64,000 nt of DNA from Agroathelia rolfsii (lineage: Eukaryota > Basidiomycota > Agaricomycetes > Amylocorticiales > Amylocorticiaceae): positions 3,011,001 to 3,075,000 of the forward strand of contig JABRWF010000005.1 in assembly GCA_018343915.1 (NCBI GenBank), written 5' to 3'. The notes beneath the pieces were generated by a model, which worked only from the letters and a program-made list of their open reading frames with translations, did not search any database and was not told the origin of the DNA. Position 1 is the stretch's first letter. Each line of letters opens with the position of its first letter. Shown in pieces: positions 12,329 through 64,000 of this stretch. The translations under genes and the position numbers were made by a program.

Positions 12329-12904
12329 ATAAGCTATTTTCTAGAGGCTAGATATGGGCGCGATTAAAAAATATGGCGTAGCTAGCAGGATAGCCGGTTG
12401 CGGCGAGGATGCAAGTCAAGTGAGAGGGCGAAGTGGGTAAATATTAATTTGTCGAGCGGTTTAACTAGAATGAAAATCTAAATAAGATGAGGGGGAGACA
12501 AAAAGAATTTTATGAAGAGGTGCCAGAGGGTGAGGGAGCCGAGCTGAAGTGGTTGTGGGTCCTTGTGGGTCCCTTTAACAGGCATTGTATTCCCTCCTCC
12601 CAAACGGGCGGTGGTTCCGGCCGGAAGCAACAACGTGTTTTGATCGGCGACGTGCCTTTTCCAGCCACCGCCACAGCAGCCACCATGTGGCTTTGTGCTT
12701 GGACTTTTCTTTCTTATTACTTTTCTCTCTGAGTACCGCCGCGGCCACTTGGCTTTTTTCATCTGCTTTCTTTTCCTTCTCTCTTTCTTCGATTCTTTTT
12801 TCGGACTCTCTGGCTCTTTCTGGAATAGAATAATAGACCTTCCCCCTATAGACCCTAGACAACAGTTCTGCTTTCTTTGTCTCAAATTTTTCAAGCGGCT
12901 TCCC
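12329..12904. other. Intergenic, divergent
   Basis: About 580 bp between two divergent genes, ending in a long pyrimidine-rich tract (about 12690-12800) just upstream of the F-box gene, suggestive of a core promoter or leader. The tract creates long spurious open frames on both strands; no gene is supported. Confidence 0.45.
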
Positions 12905-14380
12905 ATGCATCAAGCACTTCTCATCGACGAAATTCTTCGGCACACAGTGGCCTTTTCAGACAATGTGGAGCTTGCGGTACTAGCAAGGACCTGTCGTGCA
13001 TTCCATGAGCCGGCTCTCGATCGCCTTTGGAGTGTTCTCTACTCACCTGCACCTTTACTACGTTTGCTTCCTGTGACAAGTGAAAGTGCAGACGACTTGC
13101 AGGTGAGCATAATTATCTACATCCGTCTTATCTCTTATCTATCTGACCATCTACAGAATACTACGGCCAATATATCTAGATTCCAATTCTATGCAGCTCG
13201 CGTCCAAAACATCTACCAGACTAGACCTGCCTCTGTTGGCACACGTATCCTGCCCGACTCGGAGGCGTCATTCGTTTTGTTTCCAAGGTTGAAATCCATT
13301 CATATCACCCAGCCTGTCCGGGAGTCCAAAACTCTAACGCATCTGTGTGCTTCGTCTCACTTCCGGAGTCTAGAAGTGAATCTTGGCTTCAGAGAAGTGA
13401 TTGACCCCGATGTCGCCTCTTTCCTGGAGGATGCAGCAAGACGATCCATTCCTATCGAGCATATTGACCTACGAGGGTCTGGATCACTGCGGCTCTACAC
13501 CGCCGTCAGCTCCTTGACTTCGCTAGTCTCCCTGCGCTTACGGAGTGGGATAAAGCAGCAAATATCTCCCGAGGTTGTCCTCGCCATTTCACTCTTTCCC
13601 AAGCTGGAAACTTTTGAAATTCACGCAGGTCCCCTCGACCTAGAGTGCATAGAACCTATATCAGGCAGGCCCGTGTTTCCTTCCCTGCGTCATCTTCGAG
13701 TCTGGGGATGCCATGCCCTTGTTCCCTTCATTTTAACGCATTGTCAACTAAATACCCTTCAGACTATCGAGGTCAGAAGTCCTAATTCAGACGATCCAGT
13801 ACCTTACTGGGAAAATGTACTGCCCATGATTGCCGTTAAATCATCTAGTAGCGCCTCCTACATACATCTAGAAGATCGTAGCTGGACCTCTTCAATATCC
13901 TTCCCACTGGAGTTGCTCCAGCCGTTGTCTCTTTTGCAAACGCTTAAGATCGATCTTCCTTCGCCTCTGGACTTTAGCGACGCCGAAATCTCGAGGGTGT
14001 TCCGCTCGTGGCCTTCTTTGCGGGAGTTGAGTTTCACCGCACTAGAAGGTCTTGATCGCGTACCCCAAGCGACATTGAAAGGTTTCCGCACCCTAATTAA
14101 ACACTGCCCCCTTTTGGAGCGTCTTTCCATCCATGCCGATTTCTCGAAGCCTATCGAGGAGTCTTCGCCTTCGCCGCTCCTCGCCATTAAATCCGATACG
14201 ATGAACGTCCTTTTCATCGGTGGTAAAGGAGACATAACGCAGCCACAAAAATTGGCCCTGCTTTTTCGCAATATGTTCCCCGCTCTTACCTGTTTGGAGA
14301 CCATTATTGATGACACCTGCGAAAATACTTGGAAAGCTTTCAAAGATGAATTTTATAGACTAGAGACCCCCGCCCATTAA
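12905..14380 (+). CDS. F-box/LRR-type protein
   Basis: Two exons (12905-13102 and 13157-14380; the 54-nt intron is a multiple of three and could also be read through) give 473 aa. The N-terminus carries an F-box-like helix pair (LLIDEILRHTVAF, then LAVLARTCRAFHEPALDRLW), the adaptor that binds Skp1 in SCF ubiquitin ligases. The rest is leucine-rich with repeated L-x-x-L-x-L segments (SLRHLRVWGC, LQTIEVRSP, LLQTLKIDLPS, LRELSFTAL), which would form an irregular LRR substrate-recognition arc. This architecture is extremely expanded in mushroom-forming fungi and substrates are generally unknown. The first in-frame ATG after the pyrimidine tract that opens into the F-box was chosen; upstream sequence is also open. 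It precedes crtI by 377 bp, with no functional link evident. Confidence 0.75.
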   Translation: MHQALLIDEILRHTVAFSDNVELAVLARTCRAFHEPALDRLWSVLYSPAPLLRLLPVTSESADDLQVSIIIYIRLISYLSDHLQNTTANISRFQFYAARVQNIYQTRPASVGTRILPDSEASFVLFPRLKSIHITQPVRESKTLTHLCASSHFRSLEVNLGFREVIDPDVASFLEDAARRSIPIEHIDLRGSGSLRLYTAVSSLTSLVSLRLRSGIKQQISPEVVLAISLFPKLETFEIHAGPLDLECIEPISGRPVFPSLRHLRVWGCHALVPFILTHCQLNTLQTIEVRSPNSDDPVPYWENVLPMIAVKSSSSASYIHLEDRSWTSSISFPLELLQPLSLLQTLKIDLPSPLDFSDAEISRVFRSWPSLRELSFTALEGLDRVPQATLKGFRTLIKHCPLLERLSIHADFSKPIEESSPSPLLAIKSDTMNVLFIGGKGDITQPQKLALLFRNMFPALTCLETIIDDTCENTWKAFKDEFYRLETPAH

Positions 14381-14757: not shown

Positions 14758-17212
14758 ATGTCCTTTCAGCGTCCCAAAGCAGTTGTCATCGGTGCAGGCG
14801 TCGGCGGTGTAGCAGTCGCTACCAGACTGGCCAAAGCAGGCTATTCTGTTCATGTCTATGAGAAAAACGATTTTACAGGCGGTCGATGCTCTCTCATTCA
14901 CCATGACGGATACGTGAGCTACACAAAAATACCTTCGAGATGATATATAAGCTGACCAGCGGAGTGTTCGTTATACAGAGATTTGACCAGGGTCCATCAT
15001 TGTTGCTCCTACCCGACCTCTTCCGTGAGACGTTTGCAGACCTAGGCACATCGTTGTCCGAGGCTGGTGTTCATCTGGTCAAGTGCGACCCAAGCTATCG
15101 TGTGCATTTTCATGATGGGGACTCGTTTATGCTCTCGACGGATTTATCTGTCATGAAGAGAGAAATAGAGAAGATTGAAGGCAAAGACGGCTTTGAGAGG
15201 TGTGTGTACCGACATTTGACTGGGATTTATCTCATTTTTCAACTGCACGTTAGATATCTGAGTTGGCTTCAGGAAGCTCATAGGCATTATGAGCTGTCTG
15301 TTGAGCATGTTCTAAAGAAGAACTTTTCATCGTTTTTCTCTATGCTTCGACCATCGTTCTTGCCACACATTTTAGCCCTTCATCCTTTCGTATCTATTGT
15401 GAGTAGCACCTCTAAGAAATGCGGTCGAAATTGCTGACCTTCTTGAAAGTGGAGCCGAGCTTCAAAGTATTTCAAAACCGAGCGACTGCGCAGAGTCTTT
15501 ACATTCGGGGTATGTAAGTTCTACCTTGTATTGACTCGTACGCTGACACGACATTGCAGTCGATGTATATGGGTGTAAGCAATTTTTCGTGAAGTTAACG
15601 GAACATTTTACTGAATTCGTCAAAACTTCGATGATTAGATGAGGTTTGTTTCTAAAAAAAAAAAACTCATAAAATACATTTATTAAATTAACGTATCTTC
15701 AGCCCATTCGACGCCCCTGGAACATATTCATTATTGCAATATACGGAGTTGGCTGAAGGGATATGGTATCCCATCGGCGGATTTCATGCGGTACGCGAGA
15801 TCGCGGTTCCTTCCGCATATATCCAGCTAATATATTCCCCAAAACTCTAGGTCGTACAAGCCCTTGTGAATCTTGCTAAATCGCAGTCACTCGATCTTAC
15901 GTACCATCTCTCAACACCTGTCACTTCTATCAACCTATCGCCTACCGCTCCTGGGAAACAACGCGCAACCGGTGTTCACCTAGCAAATGGGCAGCATGTC
16001 GAAGCGGATGTCGTAATATGTAATGCAGATCTGGTCTACAGTTTTAAAGAGCTTTTGCCTAAAAGCGAATGGAGCGAAGCTTTAGATAAGAGGAGTGCTA
16101 GCTGCAGTAGTAAGTCATACTGCCTTCGTATTCTCTTTGTGACAGCGAAGACTAAAAATGTCTTAGGTGTTAGTTTTTACTGGTCTATGGATCGCCAAAT
16201 ACCTGAACTAGGTGCTCACAAGTAAGTTGTTTCTTTTATCGCTACTTTTCTTAACTCAACTGAGATCATACCAGCGTTTTCCTGGCGGAACACTACGAAT
16301 CGTCATTTTCTTCCATTTTTGCCTCGCAAGAGCTGCCTACTGAGCCGTCATTCTATGTAAACGTTCCTTCGCGCATAGACAAGAGCGCTGCTCCCGAAGG
16401 CAAGGATGCCGTAGTCGTCCTAGTACCCATAGGCCATCTCGGCGGCCCCCTCGGAGACGCGAACACGAAAGGAAGAATGACAGAAGTCGTGCAAATTGCA
16501 CGGGAGAAAGTGCTGGCAACGCTCGAGACCAGACTTAGGATGGGCCATGGTTCGTTTGAACAGCATATCGCCCACGAGATAGTCAATACACCGGAGACAT
16601 GTAAGTCTTCTCTTCACTATTAAAAAATCAATGGGCTTATTGTGGATTGCCGGATCTAGGGAAGGAGAAGTTCAATCTTGACAAGGGAGCCATCCTGGGC
16701 TTATCCCATAGTTTTTTGTAGGCACATTTCGCGGATTTTTGTAAAGAGGAAAAGCATTCTCAATCACCATTCTATAGCAACGTCCTCTCTTTCCGCCCAC
16801 AAACGCGACACCCCGATATCGATAGCTGCTATTTTGTCGGTGCATCTACCCATCCTGGCACAGGGTGAGCATTATGCGCCCATCCTTCCCTCATCGAGCC
16901 CTAAGTTCCTTTTTTCTCCTGGATAGGGTGCCTATATGCCTTGCAGGCGCCAAGATAACTGCTGCCCAAGTGCTTTCTGACTCCGGTCATCCACATGACC
17001 CAGTACTGTCATCATACTCTCCTTACAAGCCGGGGCGCCCTTCACGAGGACTCGATACTGTAGCGCCATTAGCTTCATGGAGATCCGTCATCAGAGTAGT
17101 GGTGGCTACCTTCGCGCTCTACGCTATCGTAGTTACGTTTGGTTTGATGAGCCCAACGGTTACTCCGATTAAGCCGAGTAAGGGGAGGGACCGAATAGGG
17201 ATATACATATAG
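14758..17212 (+). CDS. crtI: Phytoene desaturase
   Basis: FAD-dependent carotenoid desaturase converting phytoene to lycopene (or further). Thirteen exons (14758-14913, 14979-15199, 15254-15398, 15450-15509, 15560-15574, 15639-15643, 15703-15790, 15851-16109, 16167-16221, 16275-16600, 16660-16717, 16778-16864, 16927-17212) total 587 codons (586 aa), the fungal CrtI/AL-1 length. N-terminal dinucleotide fold VVIGAGVGGVAVATRLAKAG with YEKNDFTGGRC, then RFDQGPSLLLLPD, SPFDAPGTYSLLQYTE and WYPIGGFHA; near the end DSCYFVGASTHPGTGVPICLAGAK is the carotenoid-dehydrogenase signature. A C-terminal hydrophobic helix (VVVATFALYAIVVTFGL) would anchor it in the membrane, as in other fungal CrtI. Exon 5 is 15 nt and exon 6 only 5 nt (ATGAG). 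Tail-to-tail with crtYB. Confidence 0.96.
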
Positions 17213-17501
17213 TCTGACTTGTATGAGTTGTATTAATACTGTTTGGGTGTAATACGATGTAAGCCGTTGCAGTGCCAAACGACCAAGGTTCTGTCTCTCG
17301 AGTTCGTGATTTGTGGTAACAAGTGTGATTTCTTATTTTACAATATCAAATCTATTTCAGTTATGCGTTCATCTTGTCGTTTATTTTCACCCATCTGTAT
17401 TCAGTCATCATTTCTAGTCTGCAGTCAAGAAGTGATTGATTTATCCAGATAGGAGTCCAAGCATAAGCATTACATTTTAACATATAAGTACAGTATCTAT
17501 A

Positions 17502-19716
17502 TCACCTCTTTCCCGTTGCTTCCCAAGCCAAAGCCAGCCGGCGCTTCCACGGAACACGAACTCTTTCAACACCTCTACCATACTCTAGAAGTGTCTGCCC
17601 CACCTCCAGGTATTGTTCAATGGCTACATACAGTCCAGCGCGTGCACCGGGTGGCATCTGAGCGATGGCCGGTCCAGAGGAGGCGTACATCGCACGTGCA
17701 CATGCGACGAGGTGAGCTTGGTAGTCAAAGATGAGCGCCTCTAGCGCTGCGTCTATCGCAGCATCTCCTGTCTTGCCGCCCTCTACCAGCAAAGAGAACT
17801 CTTCGTCGCTCTCCTTGGGTATCGATGTGGCCTGCGGTGGGTGTCGATTGACATAATCGACAATATCAGCAGGTCCAAGTGCCCGTCCTGTTGCCTGGCG
17901 GAAGATGTACGGCGTGTGCTCGGCGAGCCAGCGCGCGGGGATGTAGCATCGCTGCCCTTGGCGAGCGTCGACACGGATATCGCGCGCAATATTGACCAGC
18001 TGGAGAGCACGGCCAACACGCTGGGCGTGATAAAGCACGTTCAAGGGCGCGGTGGTGGATATACGCGATTTAACACTTTGGGGACGATGCTCCAGGTCGG
18101 TGTCGGCGGTGAAATCTAGCTCTCCATCTTTGTCCTCATCGCTTATGCCTGGCCAGAGCAAGTGGACGCACATGCCTGCGACAGAGCCGGCGACGCATTG
18201 GCTATAGCGCATGAGATCTGCGTTGGTTTGGATGGGCCATTCGTGTGGTGCTGAATATTCCGTCTTTGCTTGGACGCTGTCTCCTGCAGATGGATGGCGG
18301 TGCGGGGTAAACTGAAGGTCGGTATGGAAGCCATCAATGAGCTGGTCGAAGTATTTGCGGGGGATACGTGCTGCCAGGGATGGATACAAAGCCGCGATGC
18401 TGGCGGTCTCGTCGTTCATCCCCTCAGACGATGTGGGCCCCTCGGTGGGGTGGTATGAGGGATTGTTCATGAGCTGTCGGATTCTCTGTAAGGCAATCTC
18501 TGCCTCTTTTGGTGAGGGTGCATCATCTATAAGATTGTCGCAAATCCGACAGAGGGCATAGCTTGTGGTCCTTGTTAGTCGGTGGACGGTGTATGCAAAA
18601 AGTTCTTGAGACTTACAGTTGAAGTAAACCTATCCTCTCTCTACCTTCGAAAAGCATGCTGGCAGCAAGGAAACTCTTACCATGCTCCTATACTATGATC
18701 AGCCAAACGAAATAATTGAGGATTGTTTGAATCAGAATTACCTTGTGTCTAAGAACATCATATGCCATGTCTAGTTCATCTAGACGTTCTCGAGGCCAAC
18801 GACTAGGGTTCACGAGCAAGGCCCTGAGGAGCATGTAAGCCCTGTCCAGGCCAATAGCATTCATGCAAGCTGACCTGATAGGGGATCCTACTACATCTAA
18901 TCCAAATGTGTCCCAGATCGCAAAGGCTTTGCTCGCTGCGACGAGCCCAAAAACGATCATGACATTTGTCACCAAGAAGAATATTGCCTCTTCAATCTCA
19001 AGGTTCGGCCACAGGTACCAGCCTAATTTAGTACCCGTAGAGATTGACCAAGTCCCGCGACGGAGGGATAATGTGTCCACAAGCCAGAGGTACAGGGTCG
19101 GTAGGAGTATTGGAAGAGCAGTGCATGTGAGCGGAAGCGAAACTAAGTGCGAAGACGCGAGGATCCATAGAAATAACATGAACGGGCCTGACCAAAGTAG
19201 TATCAGGCCTAAATAAGTGCCCACGCCTCCGGCATATGTTAATACAAGGCCTAAGATGCACACGGAAGCGAGGAAGGTTGTTCCGAGGTATTTATTCTGG
19301 GATGAAGTAGAATGCCTGGGCAAATGCAGGGGGTGTAGGACTGGCTTGGAAAGTACAAGGTAAAGTTGGGAGGTGATGTATGTTTGGATCACAAAGAAGA
19401 AAAGTTCTTCAATAGGAACGAAGAACAGAGTGGGACCCATGACGGCATGTGGTGGGTATGACCATATCTGAGTTCTGACCAGATAGGAATCCCAGGGGAT
19501 TGTGGAGACAAATGCGACCTGCCCGTGTCCGAGTCAGTGGTATATATGCGCGTGAGTTGACTTTGCAGGAAGCTGAGAGAAGGATTGAATGAATCATACC
19601 GTAACAAGGAAACTTGTGAGGAAAACATCCCGCGAGGTCCGTATGCGTCTAAACGTCCACCATAATATCAGAGCAGGTGGAATAGTGAAATAAATGTGAC
19701 TTTTAACGTGTTCCAT
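17502..19716 (-). CDS. crtYB: Bifunctional lycopene cyclase/phytoene synthase
   Basis: Makes phytoene from two geranylgeranyl diphosphates and cyclises lycopene to beta-carotene. Four exons (19716-19600, 19518-18742, 18675-18617, 18561-17502) total 671 codons (670 aa), close to known fungal fusions. The N-terminal half is a membrane protein with the two-repeat fungal cyclase: STIPWDSYLVRTQIWSYPP, VPIEELFFFVIQT, then EIEEAIFFLVTNVMIVFG. The C-terminal half is a squalene/phytoene synthase with aspartate-rich motifs CRICDNLIDDA and LVNIARDIRVDA. The start MEHVKSHIYFTIPPAL places a hydrophobic first helix as in relatives. It is divergent from the carotenoid oxygenase (509 bp between starts) and convergent with crtI, so these three genes form a compact pathway locus. 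Confidence 0.96.
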
Positions 19717-20225
19717 CGTGTTGAAAGCGGCAAAAAAACGTCAGTTAGGTTAGTGAACTGCATAGTAGGTTGCAACTCACACTTTGGCGTAATCCCAGCC
19801 CATGGGTGCTCAAGTGCAACGTTGGGATGCCCAATGCTGATGTCGAGTCTTTCATTGTACGTGCACATCGATGCCGTTGTGCGGCCATCCAGATCGAGAA
19901 ATGCTTCATACGTTCAAAGGCCGGAGATCGGCGCTCGGAGAAGCGCTCATAGATGACGCCATAATGCATGATGCCTTCACGGCGGAAGTACATTGTGTGT
20001 TCTCGGCTTGATCGGTACAAAGTTAATCGTTAATCGGAGCCACTTGTCAGCACATGACATGGAAGAATTTGGGCTTTGGGTTCTGGCTCTAGCTCCTCTC
20101 TTTCGTCACACGTTTGAAGTCATTCGTTATACCATTTGCCGTCAATAGTAGCGAGAGAAAATGCCAGTACTATACACTAACTTGCTTGGGACAGCAAACG
20201 CCCATCCAGACCCAGTAGTACCTTC
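19717..20225. promoter_or_regulatory. Shared divergent promoter, crtYB / carotenoid oxygenase
   Basis: The 509 bp between divergent start codons contain a run of GATC/ATCGAT-type sites within 150 bp (ATCGAT 19867, GATCGA 19892, GATCGG 19926 and 20010) and an ACGTCA half-site at 19738, close to the crtYB start. Similar cores occur upstream of crtI. Co-regulation, possibly by light, is inferred. An open frame on the minus strand (19745-20020) is probably leader or chance. Confidence 0.4.
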
Positions 20226-22526
20226 ATGCATCCATACCTTACTGGAAACCGTGCTCCCGTCACTCATGAGCTTCCCCTGACTCCTTGTCATGTGGCACAA
20301 GGCCACATACCTGAGGAAATGATAGGTGGTATCTACGTTCGCAATGGGAGCAATCCAGCACCGAAAGTAAACGTCGACAAGTCAAGAAATTACCACATGT
20401 AAGGGCGGCTAATGCAATCTATTTGCTCTTAGCTATCTATTAACCTGTACCCAACAATATGCTCAGGTTTGATGGAGATGGCATGCTCGCTGGTGTATAT
20501 TTTGATCCTATACAAGGGCCCATGTTTACTAGCCGCTGGATACAAACAGACGTCCTCAAAACCGCTCAAAAGCTTCAGCTTTCTCGTCCCGTTTTCCCCA
20601 GCATTACTACCCTCATCAACCCTAATGAGGACACACTATATCTTGTTTATTCCTTTCTGCGCACGATGGCTATATTTCTTCTCACATCGCTTGCCCAAGT
20701 CTTATCGTTTGCTCATCTTCACGGCCTTCGCCTACTCAGGCGAGTCAGCGTTGCCAACACCGCTATAATGTGGTGGGACCGCATGGCTTTGGCGACGTGT
20801 GAAAGCGGGCCTCCTATGAAGATTGCATTACCGGAACTTGAAACCAAGGGATGGTGGCCATTAGGTGAAGGTACACAGGAAGATCCTGGTTTAATCTCGC
20901 GAGGAGGCATCAAAGCATTCTTTGAAGAATGGACGACAGCTCATGTATGTATAATTTACTCTACTTCACAAATCTCGGCTTAAAATTCATGGTGCTTTCC
21001 CTAGCCTCATGTCGATCCTATCACGAACGAATTCATAGCATTCCACTCTTCATTTTCTGCGCCTTACATCTTTTACTCCGTTTTGCCCCCACACTCTTCC
21101 TCACACCAGAAGAAACTTCTAAGGGTGCCCATTCCAGGTCTCGAGGGGCCCCGGATGATGCATGACTTTGGCGTCAGTCTTCGTCACACGCTTATCCTGG
21201 ACTTTCCACTATCGCTCCAAATCTTCCCTTCGTTTTCACTCCACGCACCTTTCTTATCATCATGGAAAGACCTGACGAATTTCGCCAAACGCCCTCTCCT
21301 TGCTCTACCGTTAACTTGGCGCATCCGCCCAACTTTGACGTATTCTCCTCAAAGTGCCTCACGGATTGGTGTTCTACCGCGATACGAGCCGGAGCAAGTA
21401 AAATGGTATACCTTGGATAGGAAAGGTGGCTGTGTATTCCACACAGTCAATGCATGGGATGACGAAGACGAGACATGCAGGGGTAAAGATAAGGCAGTAA
21501 ACCTCCTCGTGAGTCGTATGGGTGGAGATAACCTAGTTTGGACTGCGGGGAATATCAATCCACCGACTGCCGCTATCGCTCATGATCGACCACATCAATA
21601 CGAAAAGCCTAACGTTGATTCGGAACAAGATGAATGTCTTTTGTATTACTGTACGTGGTGATCTTTTCGCTCTGACCTTGATCTGAATACTTGACCCGAC
21701 AGATCGTTTACCACTTCTCTGCGACCCTGGGACAGAACTACGCCCTAGCCATGCGTTCCCGTTATTCTCATTGCCCTTCGAGTTTTCGACGCTTCACCCC
21801 CAAAAAAGTATGCGAGATGCACGATGGGTGTGGGGCTGCTCCCTCTTCGGTGCTGGATCTGATCATGGCCCTTTCTCTAACACGGCAATGGAGAAGAATA
21901 CTTGTGAGTCTTTCCACGATCTAGAGAAGGCGTCGAATGAGGACAGCTCCCCGGATTCCCGCAGTAGTGCATACACTACGGCGCTCAGCTCAGGCTTCAA
22001 GATCGACTGCCTGGTCAAGGCCAACGTTCGTGCCCTCATCGAACGCGGGATACAGAGAAACCAAGGAGAATGTGCGCGACCCGTGGATACAAGGAGCCCC
22101 AGGGAAATCTGGGGGACGGCACGGCATGGTCACCACGCTGAGGATATCATCAAGGTGTTCAAGCTACCTCAGGGGTGGTATGCACAGGAAGTCACTTTTG
22201 TGCCTCGTCGACGAGCGTCTTCATCCACGTCGCCGCATACCAGCCACGAAGACACGACGGTATCAGAAGAGGACGAAGACGATGGATACCTTCTAACATA
22301 TGTTTTCGACGAGAATCAGCTCGACCAGCCTCTCTCGGACTCGGTGGACGGGAACGGGGAAGATGAATCGGCTGCGTTGGCTCGAGCTACATCGGAGCTC
22401 TGGATCATTGACGCACGCACGATGAACGAGGAGAGTGTGACACGGATCGCGCTCCCACAGCGCGTACCCTACGGTTTACATGGCGAGTGGTTTGCTCGCC
22501 ATCAGGTTGAAAGGCAATTTGTCTAA
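20226..22526 (+). CDS. Carotenoid oxygenase (retinal-forming type)
   Basis: Non-haem iron dioxygenase of the carotenoid cleavage family; by context the CarX/Cco1-like enzyme that cuts beta-carotene (or torulene) to retinal. Four exons (20226-20398, 20467-20944, 21005-21650, 21703-22526) total 707 codons (706 aa), near the length of fungal CarX. Seen: YLTGNRAPV, IPEEMIGGIYVRNGSNP, YHMFDGDGML, SVANTAIMWW, CESGPPMKI and RVPYGLHGEWF. Four histidines sit where the iron ligands are expected: His217 (TAHPHVD), His270 (MMHDFGVS), His363 (VFHTVNAW) and His692 (GLHGEWF). The start is the first ATG of the conserved frame; a short upstream exon cannot be excluded. A low-complexity acidic insert (about 22210-22290) lies in the C-terminal third. 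Cleavage site and substrate are inferred from the neighbours. Confidence 0.92.
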
Positions 22527-23640
22527 TGCCAGACGCTGAGGACGTCAACTTCGACGCAGTGACTCGGACTTGAGATCTACGTCTGCCTAATCATATTTTC
22601 AGAAACAGCCATAATTCTCTGTTGTACATTATCCTCTAATTTCCGCATTCGTGCGGACATGTATTAGTAATGATAAAAGAATACCACTGATAGTGTAGCC
22701 TCATGAATTAACGCGGTAATTACATCATACCTTTGAGCTCCAGATGCTCCAACATGCAATCTCTTGCCTAGAGCTCTGGTCCTCTTCGGGCCACAAATTT
22801 ACGCCTAAAGAAGAGATGGACGGCCAAAATCTAGAACACTGTTAATCTTTTTGCATTCCAACTAACTGATGACGAAAGTTGCTTGTTTTGCCTTATTTTG
22901 TTTTGTATTGATCCCGTGGATACCAGTAAAGTTGATAATATTGATCATGGGTTCGAGATTCTAGATTCTCGAGCTGCTTTAGATCTGCCACAACTGAATG
23001 ACGTGCCACCTTCTAATAAGCTTGGTTGATCTAAACTCCGGAGGTCTCCTATACGGCCAACGTTCTTCCTGCTGCCTAGTATGTATTGATATTGTTCGCT
23101 TTCATCGTGCATTGTTCGGCCTCAATCAATGCCTTGAAGTTTTGACGCCTAAACATCTAGAAATGCTGATAGAACATTTTTCAATTCTCAATTGCAAGTG
23201 CACGAGTCGCCTGTCAGCTGAACCTCTCTGAGGCGATCAAAAAAAAAAAACAAACAAAACAAAACTCAGAGTTGAAACAGCTTAAACGATCGCAGTGAAT
23301 ATCTTCCGAGGAGTCTTCTCCACTTTCCGATGGCTGCCTTATTGAATTTCCGGATGAACAACTTGACGCATATGGCTCACTCTTTATCGTCATTGACTGA
23401 CTTCTTCCGTTCATCGACGTCAGAATGGCTGCTTTGGGCATTCCATCGTCATTTATGTTGCTCTGTGGAATGTATGCAGACGTCACCTGCCTCCCACGAT
23501 GAATGACAGAAGCCATGTGTATAGCTTTCTCTGGGTCCTATTAAGAGGACAAACGTCGTCCTTTCTGACATTCATCATCACTTCCGACCCGTCTCTTTCA
23601 CACATCGAGCACAAGACCCAGTTTTACAGGCTCAATAACC
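22527..23640 (+). promoter_or_regulatory. Intergenic and opsin upstream region
   Basis: About 1.1 kb with no supported gene. It holds a near-palindrome of direct GATTCT units (22953-22973) and two ACGTCA-type half sites (CGACGTCA at 23415, AGACGTCA at 23478) 155-225 bp before the rhodopsin start. These half sites echo the CRE-like site upstream of crtI. Confidence 0.35.
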
Positions 23641-24888
23641 ATGTCTCTCGAGTCCTTACCTATCCTCTCCTCTATCAACTCCAACCCCTCAACTGCGCAG
23701 GAGGCACTCACAACCGGGACTTCAGACTGGTTATGGGCCGTCTTTGCCGTCATGTTGCTTTCTGACCTCATCTTTATTTTCTGGGCCTATCGGGTAAGTT
23801 CGGTTATGAGTAGCACTTGAACATGCCAATGTCTTATATTACGTCTTTGACTCATCCAGAGACCTATTGGCACGCGCGTCTTCCACCAAATTCCAATCTG
23901 GATTTTGACGACGGCCACGATTGCATACTTTGCTATGGCTTCCAATCTTGGTAATACGCCTATCCGTGCTGAGTTCTCGCGTGGCTGGGCTGGCGGTTCA
24001 CCCACGAGGGCGATTTGGGTAAGTAAAATATTATTACAACACGCTCCGATGATGCCGAGAAAGCTTAATATATGACGTCAATACACATAGTATGCGCGCT
24101 ATATTGACTGGACGATCACCACTCCACTGTTGTTGCTGGAGCTTTTGCTCGGGACCGGACTTCCACTCTCAGATATTGTTTCGGTCGTTTTCATGGATAT
24201 CGTTATGATCGTCTGCGGATTGATCGGTGCTCTAGTCGCATCTACCTACAAATGGGGTGAGTAGCTTTTGTCGGTGGTATTACTTGGAGTGTGGCTCATA
24301 TTCGTTCCAAAGGTTTCTTCACCTTTGGTTGTGCTGCACTGATCTACATCTGGTGGCACCTTATCGGCCCCGCTCGCTTCTCTGCTGGCAACCTCAGCGC
24401 GGATGCAGGAAGGGCCTACTCGAGTAGCGCCATGTACCTCAGTTTCATTTGGATGTTGTACCCGATCTGCTGGGGTCTCTCAGACGGAGGAAACGTCCTT
24501 CGTCCTTCGGGTGAAATGATTTTCTACGGTGGTAAGTATCCAATTCGGACGTATATACCTATCTGGGCTAATACATCTTCTTTTCGTCCAACTAGTTCTT
24601 GATATATTGGCCAAGCCCGTGTTCTGCTTCTGGCACGCCCATGCGCTACGCAAAGTGGCCTATGCTGGGTATGGCTTGCACAGTGGCAAGGCAAGTATTG
24701 GTGCCGGTAACGCTGCTGGTGGTGCAGGATATGGTGGCGGTATGGGATACACCAACGGTGCAGGAACTGGTGTGGCAGGAAATGGTGCAGGCTATGCTAA
24801 TGGTGCAGGGAACAGTGCAGGCTATACCAATGGTGCCCAAACCGCGGCCGCGCCCAACGCCACAGGTACCACTGGTGCACGCGTTTGA
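23641..24888 (+). CDS. Microbial (type I) rhodopsin, retinal-binding
   Basis: Seven-helix photoreceptor or light-driven proton pump of fungal membranes. Five exons (23641-23793, 23860-24018, 24091-24256, 24313-24531, 24596-24888) total 330 codons (329 aa). Helix C reads ARYIDWTITTPLLLLEL: Arg107, Asp110 (counterion/acceptor, Asp85 of bacteriorhodopsin), Thr114 and, at the donor position, Glu121 (Asp96). Helix F has WMLYPICW and helix G has LDILAKPVF with Asp235 and the Schiff-base Lys239, so unlike opsin-related chaperones (HSP30/YRO2 type) it can bind retinal. The acceptor/donor pair suggests outward proton pumping; this is inference. After helix G comes a C-terminal tail of about 80 residues rich in Gly, Asn and Ala. 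It lies downstream of the retinal-forming oxygenase on the same strand, like carX and carO of Fusarium. Confidence 0.95.
24690..24870 (+). repeat. Gly/Asn/Ala-rich degenerate repeat in opsin tail
   Basis: The coding strand repeats short units translating as GAGY, NGAG and GYTNGA-like elements. It is in frame with the rhodopsin and free of stops, so it is part of the protein rather than a decayed repeat. Confidence 0.7.
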
Positions 24889-25608: not shown

Positions 25609-28600
25609 ATGGCCAGGCCATCCAAGGCGCAATCTACTACTTCGAAACAAAAGACTCTTAAATGTTTCTTCTCAAGTGGCTCCGACTTGAAGAATAAGGG
25701 CAAAACCAAAAATGAAAGTCGCAGTGACGAGGAGCCCGAGGACATTGTTGACGATGATGACCAAGCCGAGGTGCCCAAGGGTGCAGCGCCTGACATGTCC
25801 AATCTGCCACCTATAAACAAGATACCAGAGATCTTCTCAGATCTTGTCTCCCATATACCCGAAATCAAAGATGTCGCCGAGTTGATTCAAGGGCGCAAAC
25901 TGCGCGTGGCGACCATGTGTTCTGGGACTGAGTCTCCTTTGTTGGCCCTTGATCTCATCTGCCAGTCTATCTTGGCACAACATGGAGTGAAGATGGAGAT
26001 AGACCATGTCTTCTCCTGCGAAATCGAGCCATTCAAACAGGCTTACATTGAGCGGAATTTCCATCCACCTTTGCTCTTTCGTGATGTCTGTGAGCTCGGA
26101 GACGGCTATGCGTAAGCAGGAGTTAATTAATTTTCAAATGGATGTTTCCCCTTATTATGATACTTAGAACGACTGCTTATGGTGCATTGGCCCAAGTGCC
26201 GGGAAACGTTGATCTTCTTGTTGCTGGGACATCATGCGTCGACTACTCTAACTTGAACAACGAAAAGCAAGACCTGGAGGCCAACGGAGAGTCTGGCCGT
26301 ACCTTCCGTGGCATGATGTCTTGGGTCACAGCCCATCGACCTCCAATTGTCATCCTCGAAAACGTCTGCTCCGCTCCTTGGCCACGGGTACAGGAGAAGT
26401 TCGAAATGGAAGGTTATAGCGCCACGTTTCTCCGTCTCGACACAAAGCAATTCTACATCCCTCATACTCGTACCCGCGTTTACCTGTTCGCGGTCAACAA
26501 ACGCTCCTCTTCGAAGATACCCGAAAAATGGGAGGAGCTGATTACAAATAAGCTTAAACGTCCCGCCTCAGCGAGTTTGGACTCTTTTCTGCTCGCATCA
26601 GACGATCCACGTATACAACAGTCGCGTGAAAAGCTTGTGCAGGAAATCGCACGGAGTGCAGACAGGAAGTCTGGCAGGACGGACTGGGCCAGGTGTCAAT
26701 CGCGTCATGAGCGTACTAGGCTCGAGATGGAACTTGGGGCTAAACGTCCTCTTACAGGGTGGGATGAAGGTACCGCATTATTTTGTTCAATTCTTTCAGC
26801 TAGCTCATGCTAGTTTACTCAGGTGGATCGTGCAAGTTGCCTGACTATGCTTGGAATGACTGGGGCCGAGGCCAGGTAGAACGAGTGTGGGACGAAATGG
26901 ATATTCTCTTCCTGCAAGCTGCCCAAGAAGGCGTTGATGCCTCGTACAAGACGTAAGAGAATTGTCACTTATAAACTACATGCGATCTAATGCCTTATTT
27001 TAGGCAAGTATGGAACCTGTCGCAAAACGTAGATAGGATCAACGTGCCGAAGTGGGGTATCTCTCCTTGCTTGACACCTTCAATGATTCCCTTCGTCACC
27101 AACCGTGGTGGACCCATGGTCGGACTGGAGGCGCTCTCCATGCAAGGTCTCCCCGTGGACAGATTGCTCCTGACGCGTGAAACAGAGGACAACTTGGCGG
27201 ATCTTGCTGGAAACGCGATGACATCTACAGTCGTCGGCGCCTGTATCCTAGCCGCTCTCGTCGCAGGTAAAGGTCTTATCAAGTCGGGAAATGATCAAGA
27301 AAGCTACGAGATCAAGAATCATGGGAAAGAGGAGATCCCCGACCAGGACGATGAGATGCTCGTTGACGGCAAAGCCGATCCTGCCACAATTCCGATTGAG
27401 GAGCATATCATTGGTGATGATCAACTTGTCTCACGAACGCTCAATTCTTCGCATTCGAGCGACTACTCCCTTTCGGATTTATTGCGTGAGGCTACGCGTT
27501 CCGTGCGTCTATGCACTTGCGAGGGACGCAAAGACGTTTTTGAGCGCCCCTTCCAACGCTGTGTAGACTGCGGCTTGACAGTCTGCAGGAGATGTGCCGG
27601 TCGTCCTGAACATAATCATCAACTCATCAATCTCGCTGCCAACCCTCGTCTCCATCCCCTAGACTTTGCCAAGATTCTCAAGGCTGCATTGCCTATGTCT
27701 TTGAACATCCCTGGCGTTTCTCGAGAACTGCTCGATGATATGAAGAAATCTCACAGCCTAGAGATTCCGGGCAAGCGGTGGTCCACTTGGTCCGCTGCTG
27801 TGGTTCGGGCTACGCAGATGGAGCTTCGTTTCGTTGAGCCGAAGCGCCAGGACATTTGGTCCGCCATGTATGAGTCTCCGACGGCCATCCTGGAGCTCAT
27901 CTTCCATCCGCAACAAACGAAGTGGAGGTTATATGCTAAGGCCGAGGCCCATGAACCCGCCAACTCCGAGATTCGCAGGCTCCTTCGTTCGCCAGTTGCG
28001 CGCTTCGTGTGCAAGGGTGCTTTACTCAAGGGGCAATGGGAGTTCGCTCTTCCGAGCACGACGACAGTGAACATCAAAATATCTGCTACAGGACCGCAGG
28101 TCGACTCTTGGGGAAAAAGGCTTGGGTTACAGGATTTAGGGCACAAAGAAAGCACCGTCGCCTCTCAACTTCGTATCGAAGTCCCTCAGGAAGATCGCAA
28201 GAAGTTCGACCGCGACATCGACGGCATCTACACGCTGTTGGATAAATGTGGTACCGCCAATAGCGCCTTGCATAAAAAGCAGAGTGCAGCGGACGATGCT
28301 CTCCCACCCCTTTTCATGCTCCTGGATCCTACTCGCACCGGCGACAGCAAGGATGATTCGTTCGTATTCTCCATCACCATCAAACGTCTCGAATTTGGAG
28401 AATCGAGGCCCATTGTCTGCCGTCTGGATTCTTCCTGGAGACAGTCGTCATCGGCAGAGACTCGAGAAGTTCCCTGTCATATTTCTTGTAAATGGGTTCT
28501 GGCAACGTCGGCGAAACTCGAGGTAGCTCATCTTTTTGGATGTACTCAGCTATTTACTAATCAAATTTTCTCTAGCCATCCAGTGGTCAAAGGGCAAACT

Positions 28601-31600
28601 TCTCTGTCCCGGGAGATTCCTTAAGCGTCTCCGCTTCGTACGACTCTTGCTCCAGCGCGACGGCTATGCTTTTGGCCGAGGTTGATCTGCGTTCTCAAGC
28701 TGGACCCGAGTGGCCCCGCGGACACTGGACGGAGGTCGACCGGATCAACGAGCGAGAGACTTACCGAGCACTAAGCTTCTTTACGGAGCGTATTCGCAAC
28801 ATTGACGATCGCTATCAAGAGTGGCAAGCGGTTGCTCAACCCTCAGATGCGGATAGCAAGTCTCTATGTAGATGTGAACGTTGTGCGCCTGCACCGCCGA
28901 CATTGCAATGGGCGAAACAGTCAAACAAGATCGTCCCTGTTGAAAACCAGTCGGAGGCCGGAGAATACGAACGCCGCTTGAAGCGACGCCCTCCTCCCTT
29001 TGTCACCCAACTCAAGCTCGACGAGGAGACCGGCATTGGGCATGTTCGTCTCGGTGTTAATGTTGCATCATTGCTGCACCGTGCTGCCTCACGTCTGCCC
29101 TCGAGGTCACTGAATACCCTTCGAACCCTAGCTTGGCGTCTCAACACGAACTTTGTTCCACTGGCGAAGCTGCCCCCACCCAAGTTCTATCTGAAGAGCA
29201 ACAAGCAGGACAGAGAGCACGAGCAGCCACCCCATTTCAAGATTCCTCTCCGTCATGAGCAGTTGCGATCGCTAGAATGGATGCTGAAGCAAGAGTCTGT
29301 CTCTGCGGCTCCGTTTATCGAAGAAGAAATTTCCGAGGCTATTCTCGAGCCTCTTGGATGGCGAGCCGAGGGTCGTGCGCAGCAGGAGATCAAGGTCAGG
29401 GGTGGCGTTCTTGCGGACCAAGTTGGATACGGCAAGACGGCTATTACTCTCGGTTTGGTCGATTGTGCTGCCAAAAATATCAAAACCGAGTTTAAGGAGA
29501 TGGACAAGGAGCTGAAGGGGAAGATCGCTGTACGAGCAACGTTAGTCGTCGTACCTCCTCACTTGACGAAACAATGGAAGTCGGAGGCGGAGAAATTCGC
29601 GGGAAATCACTTCAAAGTCGTTCTCATCTCGACGATGGCCAACATTCGTAAGCTGAGGATTTCGGACATCCAGAAGGCGGACCTTGTCATTGTAGCGTCG
29701 AATATTGTGAAGAGCAAAGTGTACCAGGATGTCCTTACTGCTTTCGCTGCAGGTGGCGACCTTCCTGCTCAGGATGGACGATACTTTAATGCCCGTTTCG
29801 ACAAGGTCCTCGAATCGCTTGCTACTCAAGTCGATAGGCTTCGTGATGAAGGGCCTGAGGCGGTCATGAAGCAGATTCTCGAAGCAAGAAAACGAGGTAA
29901 TGAATTTTCAGAAGAAAAAAGTTCTATAATATATAATTCTAACAATCAAATCATCAGAGGAAGATGGTCATTCCGAAGCCTTCGTTCCCACTAAGCGTCT
30001 CAAGGGCAAGCAATACCGTGATGCCGCCGATGCCGCAGAAGCTGCTGCTGCCACTGTCAAGAAGACTAATGAGCTTATCGACGCTGGTATCCGCAAGATG
30101 GCCAAGCTTCAGGTCAGCCCGCTGCGCAAGAATCGGGCTGAAGTCTTCATCCAAGTGTCTCCACCCAAGGGATACGAATCCCTAGAAGCCTCTTTCAGGA
30201 GATCGCCACCACGACCCCTGCATATGGACGTTGATCAAGACGACGAGGAGGATGATACCAAAATTGTCCGTGGCAAGAGGAGTACCAGGGCAAAGCGCCC
30301 CGTTTTCATAGATGATGAAGATGAGGGCGAAGATGAGGCTATGATGTCTACAGGCGATTCCGATGCGCACGTTGCGAAGAAGCGCAAGACTTCAAGGGCA
30401 TCGGGCAGAAGTGTTAAATCTTCGGATGATGAGGACTTTATCGTCGTTTCTGATGACAGTGACGAGGAGAAGGACAGCGATGATGTCTTTGAGGACAGCG
30501 AAGACGAAGATTTGAAACCACGCAAGCATTCGGCCGCCAAAGCCAAGCCGAGCAAGCCCGCTCGTAGTGCCAAAGGAAAGCAATCTCGTGCGACCGATAC
30601 CTCTGAAGCCGAAGAGAATGGCGATGTAGAGGACGAGAAGCCGAAGAAAAAGCGCAAGGCAGTGGCCAAACCGACTAAGCCTAAAACTCGCGTCGAATTG
30701 TCCGACCCATGGGGCCTCAAGTCTCGCGCTGTAAAGAGTGACTGGACAGAAATGACGTCCCCTTTGCTTGAGATGTTCCATTTCGCCCGCAAAGTCATCG
30801 ATGAGTACACGTATCTCGATGGCAGCACTCGTCTCATGCACACGAAAGTGAGCGCTGATCGCAAGTGGGTGCTTTCTGGTACGCCACCGGTAAATAGCTT
30901 CCCCGAAGTCAAGACCATCGCTGCATTCCTCGATATCCATCTCGGTGTTGATGACGATGGCGATGTTATCTCCAAAGACGACAAGGAGGAAAAAAAGAAG
31001 CGCCGAGAGCAAACAGGCGAGATTAAATTTGGGTTTTATCATTGCTAGTAATCTAACTGATTAATCTAGCGGTCGAGAAATTCCACTCTTTCCGTGAAGT
31101 TCACAGTCTGGAGTGGCATGCCCATCGTCGAGAGCTCGGCCAGCGCTTCCTAGACCAATTCGTTCGCCAGGTGGGCTTTCGTCCTCTCTAAACCATTACT
31201 CATGAGCTAATACCCTTTCCAAGAACATTGCCGAGATTGACGAAATCCCGTGGTCGGAGAAGATCGAGAAGAATGAGCTGCCGGCAGCCGAGCGTGCCAT
31301 CTATTTAGAACTAGAGCATTTCTTGCGAGGCCTTGACATGAAGATTCAGCGGAAAAAGAAGTCAGAGAGCGACAGAGACGTGCGACTAGCCAAGGCGCTT
31401 GGCGAGAGCAAGTAAGCCAGCAGCTTCATCATTCTAAGTAGGATATTGACTGATCCGCATCCAGATCTGCCGAGGAAGCGCTTTTGAAACGGTGCTCTCA
31501 CTTTGATTTGGAGACAACGGACGAGGAGAATGCTATGAAAGCCTGCGAGGTGATCGTCAAAGAACGCAAGAAGCAGCTTGAAGACTGTCGTCAAGACTTG

Positions 31601-61983: not shown

Positions 61984-64000
61984 TTACTCGCCCTTTGAGT
62001 TGTGATCTACCTCCATGGCATATTCACTACCTTCATTGGCATCCTCCTCTGCTTGACGTCTCTCTAGATCTTCCATCAGCGCCTGTCGGCCTCTTGCTTC
62101 TGCATCCCGCATCATCATTTGACGAGATCTCTTCCATTCCGTCGGCTCTACAGCATTATAAAACCCGCCTACAAGACCCTCCAATGCCCACAGATAATTC
62201 AGACTCTCAAGGGACATCTCAAATGCGTCCTTTTTCACCGATTCAAGCAGCGGATGGGCAAGAATCTGCGGATAGTAGCGACCACTCACAAACGACAGTG
62301 CGAGGTGAACTTCGGAATCGGCAGGTAGGATAGGACGAAATTTGTAGCCCGTTGGTGGAAGTGGTAGCTCGGAATAATTAAGTTTAACGGCGGACGAAAG
62401 ATTCGCATCAGTCAATCCACCACCCTACCATGAGAGTATTGTTAGATTACCCTGCGACGGTTATAGTGAAGAAAAACTTACTTGTGTCTCGGTCAATAAC
62501 TTTGTCTGAGAAGACTCCGGTGGAGGCTGAGACGCAGAATTAGCTTCTTGCGAGTCAACCCAGTCCTCGTCAGCAAGCTCGTAGAGCATGCCGCATACCC
62601 GAAGCTCCCGCATTCCTTCTGGAATGTAAAACCCAGATATTCTCAAAAACGTCCCCCTGTCACCCGCTCCGTGAGCTTGCGGCGAAAATGGAACCCCCTG
62701 CTTCTCTAACCAGGCAATCGTCGCGGGTGATGCTTCGGAGGGAGCGGCGATCAAACTCGTTCCCTGAGAAATGATCTGACTTCGAGCCAATTTCAACCGC
62801 ACTAAGTCATTCACCCAAATACGCTCAGAGCCCCACCAAAGCCCTTGATAGAACGTTTGTGTTCGAATCTGGTCGCCTAAGGAAAGCAACCATGAGCTAT
62901 CAAAAAAGCAGAGCTTCACAGAAGCACATGCCTACAGTTGAAACGTATTCCCACTCGTCTGTTGGGGACCAAAACCCAGATAAAACCGATGCAATTTGTA
63001 TGGCAATACCCCATGGTGCGGCTGCTACTAGTAAATGATCACCACCTTGGAATGCTTCGGCAGGAGAGAAATTTTTCAGACGCTCAGGATCGAGATTCAG
63101 ACTTCGCACAGATACGCTTTTGAGATATTTAATTGTTTCAGAACTGGGGACCCACCCCTGATAGGGCAACACTTGACTATCCTCGAATGTGGCGGCAGCA
63201 TTGCTGGCAATGAGTCGAACATGGTACAGGACTCGATGGCCAACACCCCAAGGTGGAGAGTTTCCAGTAAGGCTTGCTTGCGCATCCGGATCTGGCTTGA
63301 TGTCGTAGTCGAAAGGTTTGATGTGAACCTCCTCGATGATACCGGGCCAATACGGTATACAAATGTCCGGTGAAGGGCTTGTGATGATAGGATCCATTGT
63401 ACACCAAACGAGTTCGTGCTCCCGGTGGATGCGATGTCTTGCGAAATCGCTTTTCACGCAAGCAGCACGAACATCTTTCTCTCGCTCAGGGACTACGGCT
63501 GCTTGTTTCTCCACTGTTTCTCTTACGGGAACTTTAGGCTTAGTATGAATAGCGGCATAAGGATGGTGCTGTGCAGGGATTTTCTTCTTTTCCCTCTGTT
63601 GACGATTGAGGATTGGCGGCTTGGGCCGGCGTGCGGGACCAGAAGATGGTGGTAAACCAAGGTCTGACACCACTTCCGACTGTGTTTTGTGCGAGCAGTA
63701 CTTGCACTGGCATGGCGGCTCTAGATTGGGTTGCATCAGCCAGAGAGCATGGGGGAAAAATTCCCGTGTGGAACGAAATTTGTGTACGGTGTTTGAACCT
63801 GGATATTTTGATCTGTCAGCCACATCACCATCGCGGATCTTTGTCGACGCACCAAACAAATATGGGTCGTGTCTTGGCCCGGAAACGGGACCTTTGTTAT
63901 GGTCGAAAAGAAGATAACCATCGGGCCAGCTCTTCAACACGTAGGGAGACGCATTATGAGGACCTTTGGGGCACGTATGAACGGACTTATTCCAGTATGT
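61984..64000 (-). CDS. Clr2-like transcriptional silencing factor (partial)
   Basis: Runs off the right edge, so the N-terminus is missing. Residues upstream of the edge read WNKSVHTCPKGPHNAS, then LKSWPDGYLLFDHNKGPVS and RHDPYLFGAS, REFFPHALWLMQ and CQCKYCSHK: the Clr2 N-terminal signature with a CXCX2C zinc-type cluster. A disordered region follows, then a bromo-adjacent-homology-like or Clr2-C region (VGHRVLYHVRL; TFYQGLWWGSERIWVNDLVR). It ends with an acidic helical tail (EWKRSRQMMMRDAEARGRQA). In fission yeast Clr2 belongs to SHREC, the histone deacetylase complex of heterochromatin. Three or more introns (around 62420-62460 and 62900) join the open frames. The frame is open throughout, so a functional gene is likely. 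Confidence 0.8.

What the first reader, a model, noticed from the sequence alone, without database searches (positions are those of the whole stretch)
14758..24888. Complete retinal-rhodopsin gene cluster in a probable basidiomycete
Seen: crtI, crtYB, a carotenoid oxygenase with four candidate iron-ligand His, and a type I rhodopsin with the Schiff-base Lys, all within 10.1 kb with no other gene between them. Known: in Fusarium the same set (carB, carRA, carX, carO) is clustered and light-regulated; in Ustilago the counterparts are not described as one cluster. Inferred: the locus makes its own retinal and a light-driven pump or sensor. No hydroxylase or ketolase is present, so a retinal end product fits better than a pigment. 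Mushroom-forming fungi mostly lack carotenoid genes, so a clustered version in this lineage would be unusual.
Basis: partly seen in the sequence, partly recalled or inferred. Interest (0 to 1): 0.9.

Follow-up and report, generated by a model that had tools for sequence, protein, structure and literature searches.

The report
Fungal retinal-making and rhodopsin gene cluster
A basidiomycete fungus keeps side by side the three genes for making retinal and the gene for the light-absorbing protein that would use it, an arrangement best known from Fusarium, and the two copies of its genome carry versions of that protein that differ at a known colour-tuning position.

Summary
Window 14758-24888 encodes four intact, intron-rich genes and no other convincing gene: crtI (+), crtYB (-), a carotenoid oxygenase (+) and a type I rhodopsin (+) with the Schiff-base lysine (K239). 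The window has a collinear counterpart at about 90% identity on another contig of the same assembly, apparently a second haplotype. There all four genes are again intact, all 23 introns keep GT..AG ends, and dN/dS is 0.13-0.19. Rhodopsin, RPE65 and crtI were each found at no other locus in the held contigs. The gene set and the divergent crtYB/oxygenase pair match the Fusarium carX/carRA/carB/carO cluster. Best reading: GGPP to beta-carotene to retinal to a green-light-driven proton pump. No biochemistry or expression was tested; light control is unproven, and the origin of the oxygenase could not be placed. New here: the two rhodopsin alleles differ (A238S) at the A/TS colour switch, so they may absorb different colours. 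A new member of a known kind, in a lineage where my literature searches found none.

The parts
14758..17212 (+). crtI / carB-type phytoene desaturase, 580 aa, 13 exons: 14758-14913, 14979-15199, 15254-15398, 15468-15509, 15560-15574, 15639-15643 (5-nt microexon), 15703-15790, 15851-16109, 16167-16221, 16275-16600, 16660-16717, 16778-16864, 16927-17212
   Evidence: spliced model; TIGR02734 416 bits, cut-off 238; second haplotype intact, dN/dS 0.128; sole locus per haplotype in held contigs
17502..19803 (-). crtYB / carRA-type lycopene cyclase-phytoene synthase, 676 aa, 5 exons (minus): 19781-19803, 19600-19699, 18742-19518, 18617-18687, 17502-18561
   Evidence: SQS_PSY, two CarR stretches; Asp-rich stretches from residues 332 and 518; dN/dS 0.163; tree
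19804..20225 (.). shared 422-bp region between divergently transcribed crtYB and carotenoid oxygenase
   Evidence: follows from the gene models; haplotypes compared over 19806-20225, 9.3% mismatch
20226..22526 (+). carotenoid oxygenase (CarX/Cco1-like, RPE65 family), 706 aa, 4 exons: 20226-20398, 20467-20944, 21005-21650, 21703-22526; probable Fe ligands H217, H270, H363, H692
   Evidence: dN/dS 0.173; sole PF03055 locus per haplotype. Most homologues have about 13 residues before the query's first Met, so the start is less sure
22527..23640 (.). spacer upstream of the rhodopsin with three GACGTCA sites (22541, 23416, 23479), conserved in both haplotypes
   Evidence: motif chosen after looking
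23641..24888 (+). type I rhodopsin, 329 aa, 5 exons: 23641-23793, 23860-24018, 24091-24256, 24313-24531, 24596-24888; D110, E121, D217, E227, K239; Gly/Asn-rich C-tail
   Evidence: dN/dS 0.189; sole PF01036 locus per haplotype
24610..24615 (+). codons for A238 (A/TS colour-switch position; GCC here, TCC = Ser in the second haplotype) and K239 (retinal lysine)

Best explanation
A retinal-rhodopsin cluster of the Fusarium car type in a Peniophora-like (probably Russulales) basidiomycete. CrtYB condenses GGPP, made elsewhere, to phytoene and cyclises lycopene. CrtI desaturates phytoene to lycopene. The carotenoid oxygenase, transcribed divergently from crtYB, cleaves beta-carotene at the central bond to retinal. 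Retinal binds K239 of the rhodopsin, whose acceptor D110, donor E121 and release-site residues D217 and E227 fit an outward proton pump driven by green light. Shown: intact genes twice over, key residues, single-locus status in the held contigs, purifying selection, basidiomycete affinity of two genes. Inferred: substrate and product of each enzyme, pumping, co-regulation, and the order-level placement.
For: Families over cut-off. Second haplotype intact, 23 of 23 introns GT..AG (22; the crtYB first intron read from the aligned sequences). dN/dS 0.128, 0.163, 0.173, 0.189. H217, H270, H363 and H692 each His in 120 of 120 oxygenase homologues. Oxygenase relatives are often linked to crtYB: read by eye, in 7 of the 8 ascomycete species named in both lists with contig lengths the two hits share a contig length, with consecutive locus numbers in Hymenoscyphus and Xylographa and a 9.4-kb contig in Lachnellula suecica. 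That is a CarX-like setting, whereas Fusarium carotenoid genes not needed for retinal, carT included, are not linked (PMC5715946, passages). D85/E96/K216 pattern in 74 of 120 rhodopsin homologues. UmOps1 and UmOps2 of Ustilago are green-light proton pumps; the paper accepts Glu as donor (its text names UmOps2, its legend UmOps1) and gives Asp at the UmOps1 release site (PMC6467936, section 18). crtYB groups with Peniophora (100) and with red yeasts, apart from all 22 named ascomycetes sampled (99). Rhodopsin groups with an unnamed metagenome protein (94) and three Peniophora rows (87). Peniophora sp. CONT rhodopsin P0004 and crtYB P0241 both report contig length 243447; in 0 of 7 red-yeast species readable in both lists do they share one. 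Prenyl synthases exist in the held contigs.
Against: No expression or product data. None of the named proteins among the 120 best oxygenase hits is a basidiomycete's, not even Peniophora's, so the retinal step is the least anchored and its tree uninformative. Glu at the donor site also occurs in NOP-1, which has a slow photocycle. The LOV-motif pattern and PAS_9 searches found nothing in the held contigs; they are exon-limited and the contigs look incomplete, so this is weak, but light control gets no support. The crtYB branch to query plus Peniophora is long (1.24). The second Peniophora strain, CBMAI 1063, shows a rhodopsin but no crtYB among the 120 listed.
Confidence: 0.8

Rival explanations
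1. Same pathway, but the rhodopsin is a slow photosensor (NOP-1-like) rather than a pump.
For: The donor site is Glu, as in NOP-1 (PMC6467936); fungal rhodopsins include non-pumping ones such as OpsA (PMC5796164, passages).
Against: The release site has Asp (D217), where NOP-1 has Gly, and E227 is kept; the Ustilago pumps show that Glu as donor permits pumping.
Confidence: 0.25
2. The locus mainly makes carotenoid pigment for photoprotection; the oxygenase trims carotenoids or cleaves torulene like CarT, and the rhodopsin is incidental.
For: CrtI-type enzymes may desaturate further to torulene (recalled); Rhodotorula has crtX and crtBY close together in its carotenoid gene cluster, and the passages I read mention no opsin there (PMC5691792).
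Against: No second oxygenase locus in the held contigs; the lysine-bearing rhodopsin is adjacent and under constraint; oxygenase relatives are often crtYB-linked, unlike Fusarium carT.
Confidence: 0.12
3. The oxygenase acts on stilbenes or another non-carotenoid, and retinal comes from outside.
For: Neurospora CAO-1 is a resveratrol cleaver (PMC5133782, passages).
Against: The best solved-structure matches are carotenoid 9,10-dioxygenases (E 3e-30); the entry 5u8x, Carotenoid oxygenase 1 (I recall it as CAO-1), scores E 1.5e-5. crtI and crtYB lie next to it.
Confidence: 0.05
4. Assembly artefact, contaminant or chance adjacency.
Against: The whole window is collinear with a second contig at about 90% identity; chaperonin hits pair contigs C1/C2, C3/C8 and C6/C7 in the same manner; all four genes are intact in both copies.
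Confidence: 0.02

Closest known systems
Fusarium car cluster (carX, carRA, carB, carO)
   Same: Same four functions; oxygenase transcribed divergently from the cyclase/synthase gene (PMC5715946, passages)
   Different: Basidiomycete; here the rhodopsin flanks the oxygenase and crtI flanks crtYB, whereas in Fusarium carO is recalled to lie beyond carB. Light and CarS control unknown here
Rhodotorula CAR genes (crtX/CAR0, crtBY/CAR2, crtI/CAR1)
   Same: Basidiomycete carotenoid gene cluster with oxygenase and cyclase/synthase (PMC5691792, passages); PMC6780508 (passages) cites a CAR gene cluster paper
   Different: No rhodopsin mentioned in the passages read; crtX and crtBY convergent except in R. 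mucilaginosa, where they diverge with a transporter gene between. Rhodopsin and crtYB hits share a contig length in 0 of 7 red-yeast species
Ustilago maydis Cco1, Ops1, Ops2
   Same: Basidiomycete retinal-forming oxygenase (PMC5133782, passages) and green-light proton pumps with the Asp acceptor (PMC6467936, section 18)
   Different: Three putative photoactive opsins, against one rhodopsin locus here; the term 'cluster' does not occur in PMC6467936
Peniophora sp. CONT rhodopsin (P0004) and crtYB (P0241)
   Same: 67% and 48% identity; both report a contig of 243447 bases
   Different: No Peniophora oxygenase among the 120 listed hits; crtI not looked for; order and distance unknown

Membership tests
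Fusarium-type retinal-rhodopsin (car) cluster | CrtI-type phytoene desaturase | tested here: met
   TIGR02734 416 bits, cut-off 238
Fusarium-type retinal-rhodopsin (car) cluster | Fused lycopene cyclase-phytoene synthase | tested here: met
   SQS_PSY and two CarR stretches over cut-off; Pfam Lycopene_cyc below its cut-off
Fusarium-type retinal-rhodopsin (car) cluster | Carotenoid oxygenase with four His ligands, divergent from crtYB | tested here: met
Fusarium-type retinal-rhodopsin (car) cluster | Linked rhodopsin with Schiff-base Lys | tested here: met
   K239 in both haplotypes
Fusarium-type retinal-rhodopsin (car) cluster | Oxygenase makes retinal from beta-carotene | not testable with these tools
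   needs an enzyme assay
Fusarium-type retinal-rhodopsin (car) cluster | Genes co-induced by light | not testable with these tools
   no transcripts; LOV pattern and PAS_9 searches empty
CarO-like rhodopsin subclass | Trp or Glu at the BR G116 position | tested here: not met
   Ile (I141), placed with a recalled bacteriorhodopsin sequence; criterion from PMC6467936, which also reports Leu in UmOps1 and says the ascomycete classes may not fit basidiomycetes
Fungal opsin-related proteins (HSP30/ORP) | Schiff-base lysine absent | tested here: not met
   lysine present; of 120 homologues 97 have it and 23 do not
Light-driven outward proton pump | Asp acceptor, carboxylic donor, release pair, Lys in sequence | tested here: met
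   D110, E121, D217, E227, K239, judged against PMC6467936 section 18
Light-driven outward proton pump | Measured light-driven proton current | not testable with these tools
   needs electrophysiology

The most novel reading that the evidence does not exclude
The two haplotypes of one dikaryon or diploid carry rhodopsin alleles of different colour. They differ at A238S, the residue just before the retinal lysine (the A/TS switch), so haplotype A should absorb at longer and haplotype B at shorter wavelength. One mycelium would run two spectrally distinct pumps from one locus, fed by its own retinal cluster, a unit perhaps as old as the common ancestor of ascomycetes and basidiomycetes.
Probability: 0.3. 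Interest if true: 0.65.

Novelty: new member of a known kind. Interest (0 to 1): 0.5.

Why it matters
It puts a complete, self-sufficient retinal-rhodopsin gene unit into a Peniophora-like basidiomycete. If that placement is right, this is a mushroom-forming class in which several listed relatives, such as Trametes, Gloeophyllum and Postia, have opsins without the retinal lysine. It is a good place to ask what rhodopsins do in such fungi, and whether the car cluster is ancient or was assembled more than once. The allelic difference at a colour-tuning residue is a direct, cheap bench test.

Tried and rejected
Nearer ATG for crtYB: rejected because it is lost in the second haplotype, while the upstream exon is open in both and gives a start of the kind I recall for fungal homologues. 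Transfer of the cluster from ascomycetes: not supported for crtYB, which falls with basidiomycetes, nor for rhodopsin, whose listed named hits are basidiomycetes; undecided for the oxygenase, since the 37 other rows of its tree include no named basidiomycete and the root is a midpoint, and untested for crtI. Shared promoter words: two 7-mers and no 8-mer occur in all three upstream regions and are conserved in both haplotypes. Light-response motifs: GATCGA occurs once and GATCNNCGAT nowhere in those regions. GACGTCA is enriched there (5 overlapping starts at 4 places, mean 0.24, 0 of 2000 first-order Markov simulations reached 5), but it was one of five motifs counted and was picked after looking, so it is a lead only. 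WC-1 by LOV pattern and by PAS_9: nothing found, inconclusive. Structure prediction was not used: its rule asks for straight translations, and these proteins are spliced.

Literature: ten paper searches. Rhodopsin + carotenoid + Agaricomycetes and carotenoid gene cluster + opsin + Basidiomycota returned 0 papers. crtYB + Agaricomycetes returned one, a Xanthophyllomyces genome paper seen only as a listing. Peniophora + carotenoid returned 21, of which I saw 15 listed titles and abstract openings, none about this. The library is open-licence PMC only, so this does not show absence from print.
Full report
WHAT IS THERE. The window is C5:3011001-3075000 of an unnamed assembly of 37.67 Mb in 8 contigs. 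Spliced by hand, 14758-24888 holds crtI (+, 580 aa, 13 exons), crtYB (-, 676 aa, 5 exons), a carotenoid oxygenase (+, 706 aa, 4 exons) and a type I rhodopsin (+, 329 aa, 5 exons). Profiles agree (Pfam, NCBIfam). crtI and crtYB converge across 289 bp; crtYB and the oxygenase diverge across 422 bp; the rhodopsin follows the oxygenase after 1114 bp. Three ORFs checked in that last gap are broken or change frame in the second haplotype.

SECOND HAPLOTYPE. The whole window aligns collinearly, inverted, to C4:1261470-1325872 in three blocks of 90.1% (53 kb), 87.8% and 91.6% identity. Chaperonin (PF00118) hits fall in like-placed pairs on C1/C2 (two genes), C6/C7 (three) and C3/C8 (one), with one C3 gene unmatched. 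The assembly therefore looks like two haplotypes of a dikaryon or diploid, some contigs incomplete; a hybrid is not excluded. In the second copy all four reading frames are intact (578, 670, 706 and 333 aa). Introns number 12, 4, 3 and 4. One search printed GT..AG ends in both haplotypes for the 22 of the first models; the crtYB first intron, added, shows the same ends in both aligned sequences, making 23 of 23. dN/dS between the copies (Nei-Gojobori): crtI 0.128, crtYB 0.163, oxygenase 0.173, rhodopsin 0.189, with dS 0.19-0.24. These are genes under purifying selection.

GENOME CONTENT. In the held contigs there is one rhodopsin locus, one RPE65 locus and one crtI locus per haplotype. SQS_PSY has crtYB plus a C1/C2 pair that is probably squalene synthase. 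PF00348 prenyl synthases occur at three loci, one of them paired on C1/C2. Absence elsewhere is only as good as the held contigs and an exon-by-exon search.

ENZYME AND OPSIN RESIDUES. In the oxygenase H217, H270, H363 and H692 are each His in 120 of 120 homologues and in both haplotypes; so are H57 and H231. In the rhodopsin the positions equivalent to BR R82, D85, T89, D96, E194, E204, D212 and K216 are R107, D110, T114, E121, D217, E227, D235 and K239 (BR numbers assigned by motif, from recall). Of 120 homologues 74 share D85/E96/K216; 97 have the lysine and 23 do not. Best matches among solved structures are Acetabularia rhodopsin I (5awz, 153.9 bits; organism from PMC6467936), an entry named Opsin (7bmh) and 6gyh. 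Against Panzer et al. 2019 (PMC6467936; passages, section 18) the residue set fits a proton pump. BR T178 is Leu (L202), as the paper says for all Ustilago rhodopsins, and BR G116 is Ile (I141), so the CarO-like mark is missing; both placements used a recalled bacteriorhodopsin sequence.

RELATIVES. Rhodopsin: best an unnamed metagenome protein (73%), then among named ones Peniophora (62 and 67%) and Ramaria (60%). In the tree of 50 rows the query pair joins that metagenome protein (94) and then three Peniophora rows (87); the 17 rows without the lysine fall mainly in one clade of 15 (100) of Polyporales- and Gloeophyllales-type names plus one Pleurotus-named row, and 3 changes of lysine state are needed in all. 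Lysine-less opsins in fungi are published (PMC4915679, passages). crtYB: Peniophora sp. CONT 48%, next 42% (only the 7999 candidates sharing most words were scored). In its 46-row tree the query joins Peniophora (100), and a branch of 99 separates 16 rows (12 named basidiomycetes, the two query rows, two unnamed) from 30 (22 named ascomycetes, eight unnamed). Oxygenase: the 120 listed hits, of 1178, have 35-43% identity, and none of the named ones is a basidiomycete's; a long branch joins the query pair to the 37 other rows of its tree, which is midpoint-rooted and has no basidiomycete comparator, so it says nothing on descent.

LINKAGE ELSEWHERE, read by eye from the tables. Peniophora sp. 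CONT rhodopsin and crtYB both report contig length 243447, most simply one scaffold. Of seven red-yeast species with a contig length in both lists none shares one (strains and paralogues may differ, so a weak control). For oxygenase and crtYB, 7 of 8 ascomycete species in both lists share a contig length; Aureobasidium pullulans does not. Published: in Fusarium carX is divergent from carRA, and carX/carRA/carB are linked to carO (PMC5715946, passages); carO counterparts were clustered with car genes in 8 of 11 species (PMC5796164, passages); in Rhodotorula crtX and crtBY are close, with no opsin named in the passages (PMC5691792).

COLOUR SWITCH. Between haplotypes the rhodopsins differ at 23 aligned residues and by a 4-residue insertion in the tail. 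One difference, A238S (GCC/TCC, codon 24610-24612), is the residue before the retinal lysine. That position is the A/TS switch, and a polar residue near the Schiff base gives a blue shift (PMC8514524, passages); S254A in KR2 shifted absorption 21 nm to the red with unchanged transport (PMC6491443, passages). Among the 97 lysine-bearing homologues 89 have Ala, 7 Thr, 1 Asn and none Ser. A single-base assembly error is possible; reads were not seen.

REGULATION. Nothing here shows light control. The LOV pattern and PAS_9 searches were empty. GACGTCA sites lie upstream of crtI (14619) and of the rhodopsin (22541, 23416, 23479) and in rhodopsin intron 2 (24073), all conserved in both haplotypes; the enrichment is post hoc.

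VERDICT. Observation confirmed; interpretation supported at sequence level. A new member of the known car-type retinal-rhodopsin cluster, in a lineage where ten paper searches showed me no description, with a testable allelic colour difference.

Noticed in passing
window 26127-29991 (+): The gene after the rhodopsin has a C-5 DNA methylase part (26127-26810), a Cys-rich stretch and an SNF2 part (28576-29991): it looks like a DNMT5-type methyltransferase (name recalled).
   Followed up: partly
window 12644-14377 (+): A long uninterrupted ORF (578 codons) upstream of crtI that reads like an F-box/LRR protein but has no Pfam hit.
   Followed up: no
G000 C4:1261470-1325872 against the window: About 10% nucleotide divergence between the two haplotypes over 64 kb, which seems high for one individual; dikaryon, diploid or hybrid not resolved.
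   Followed up: partly
window 24610-24612 and its C4 counterpart: Rhodopsin alleles differ by Ala/Ser at the A/TS colour-switch position.
   Followed up: yes
window 15639-15643: crtI needs a 5-nt microexon; the introns on both sides keep GT..AG in the second haplotype.
   Followed up: yes
window about 24690-24888: Gly/Asn/Ala-rich repetitive rhodopsin C-tail whose length differs between haplotypes (329 against 333 aa).
   Followed up: no
window 14619, 22541, 23416, 23479, 24073: GACGTCA/TGACGTCA sites conserved in both haplotypes; enrichment found after looking.
   Followed up: partly
window 62903-64000 (-): ORF with a Clr2 transcription-silencing domain, a second chromatin-type gene in the window.
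   Followed up: no
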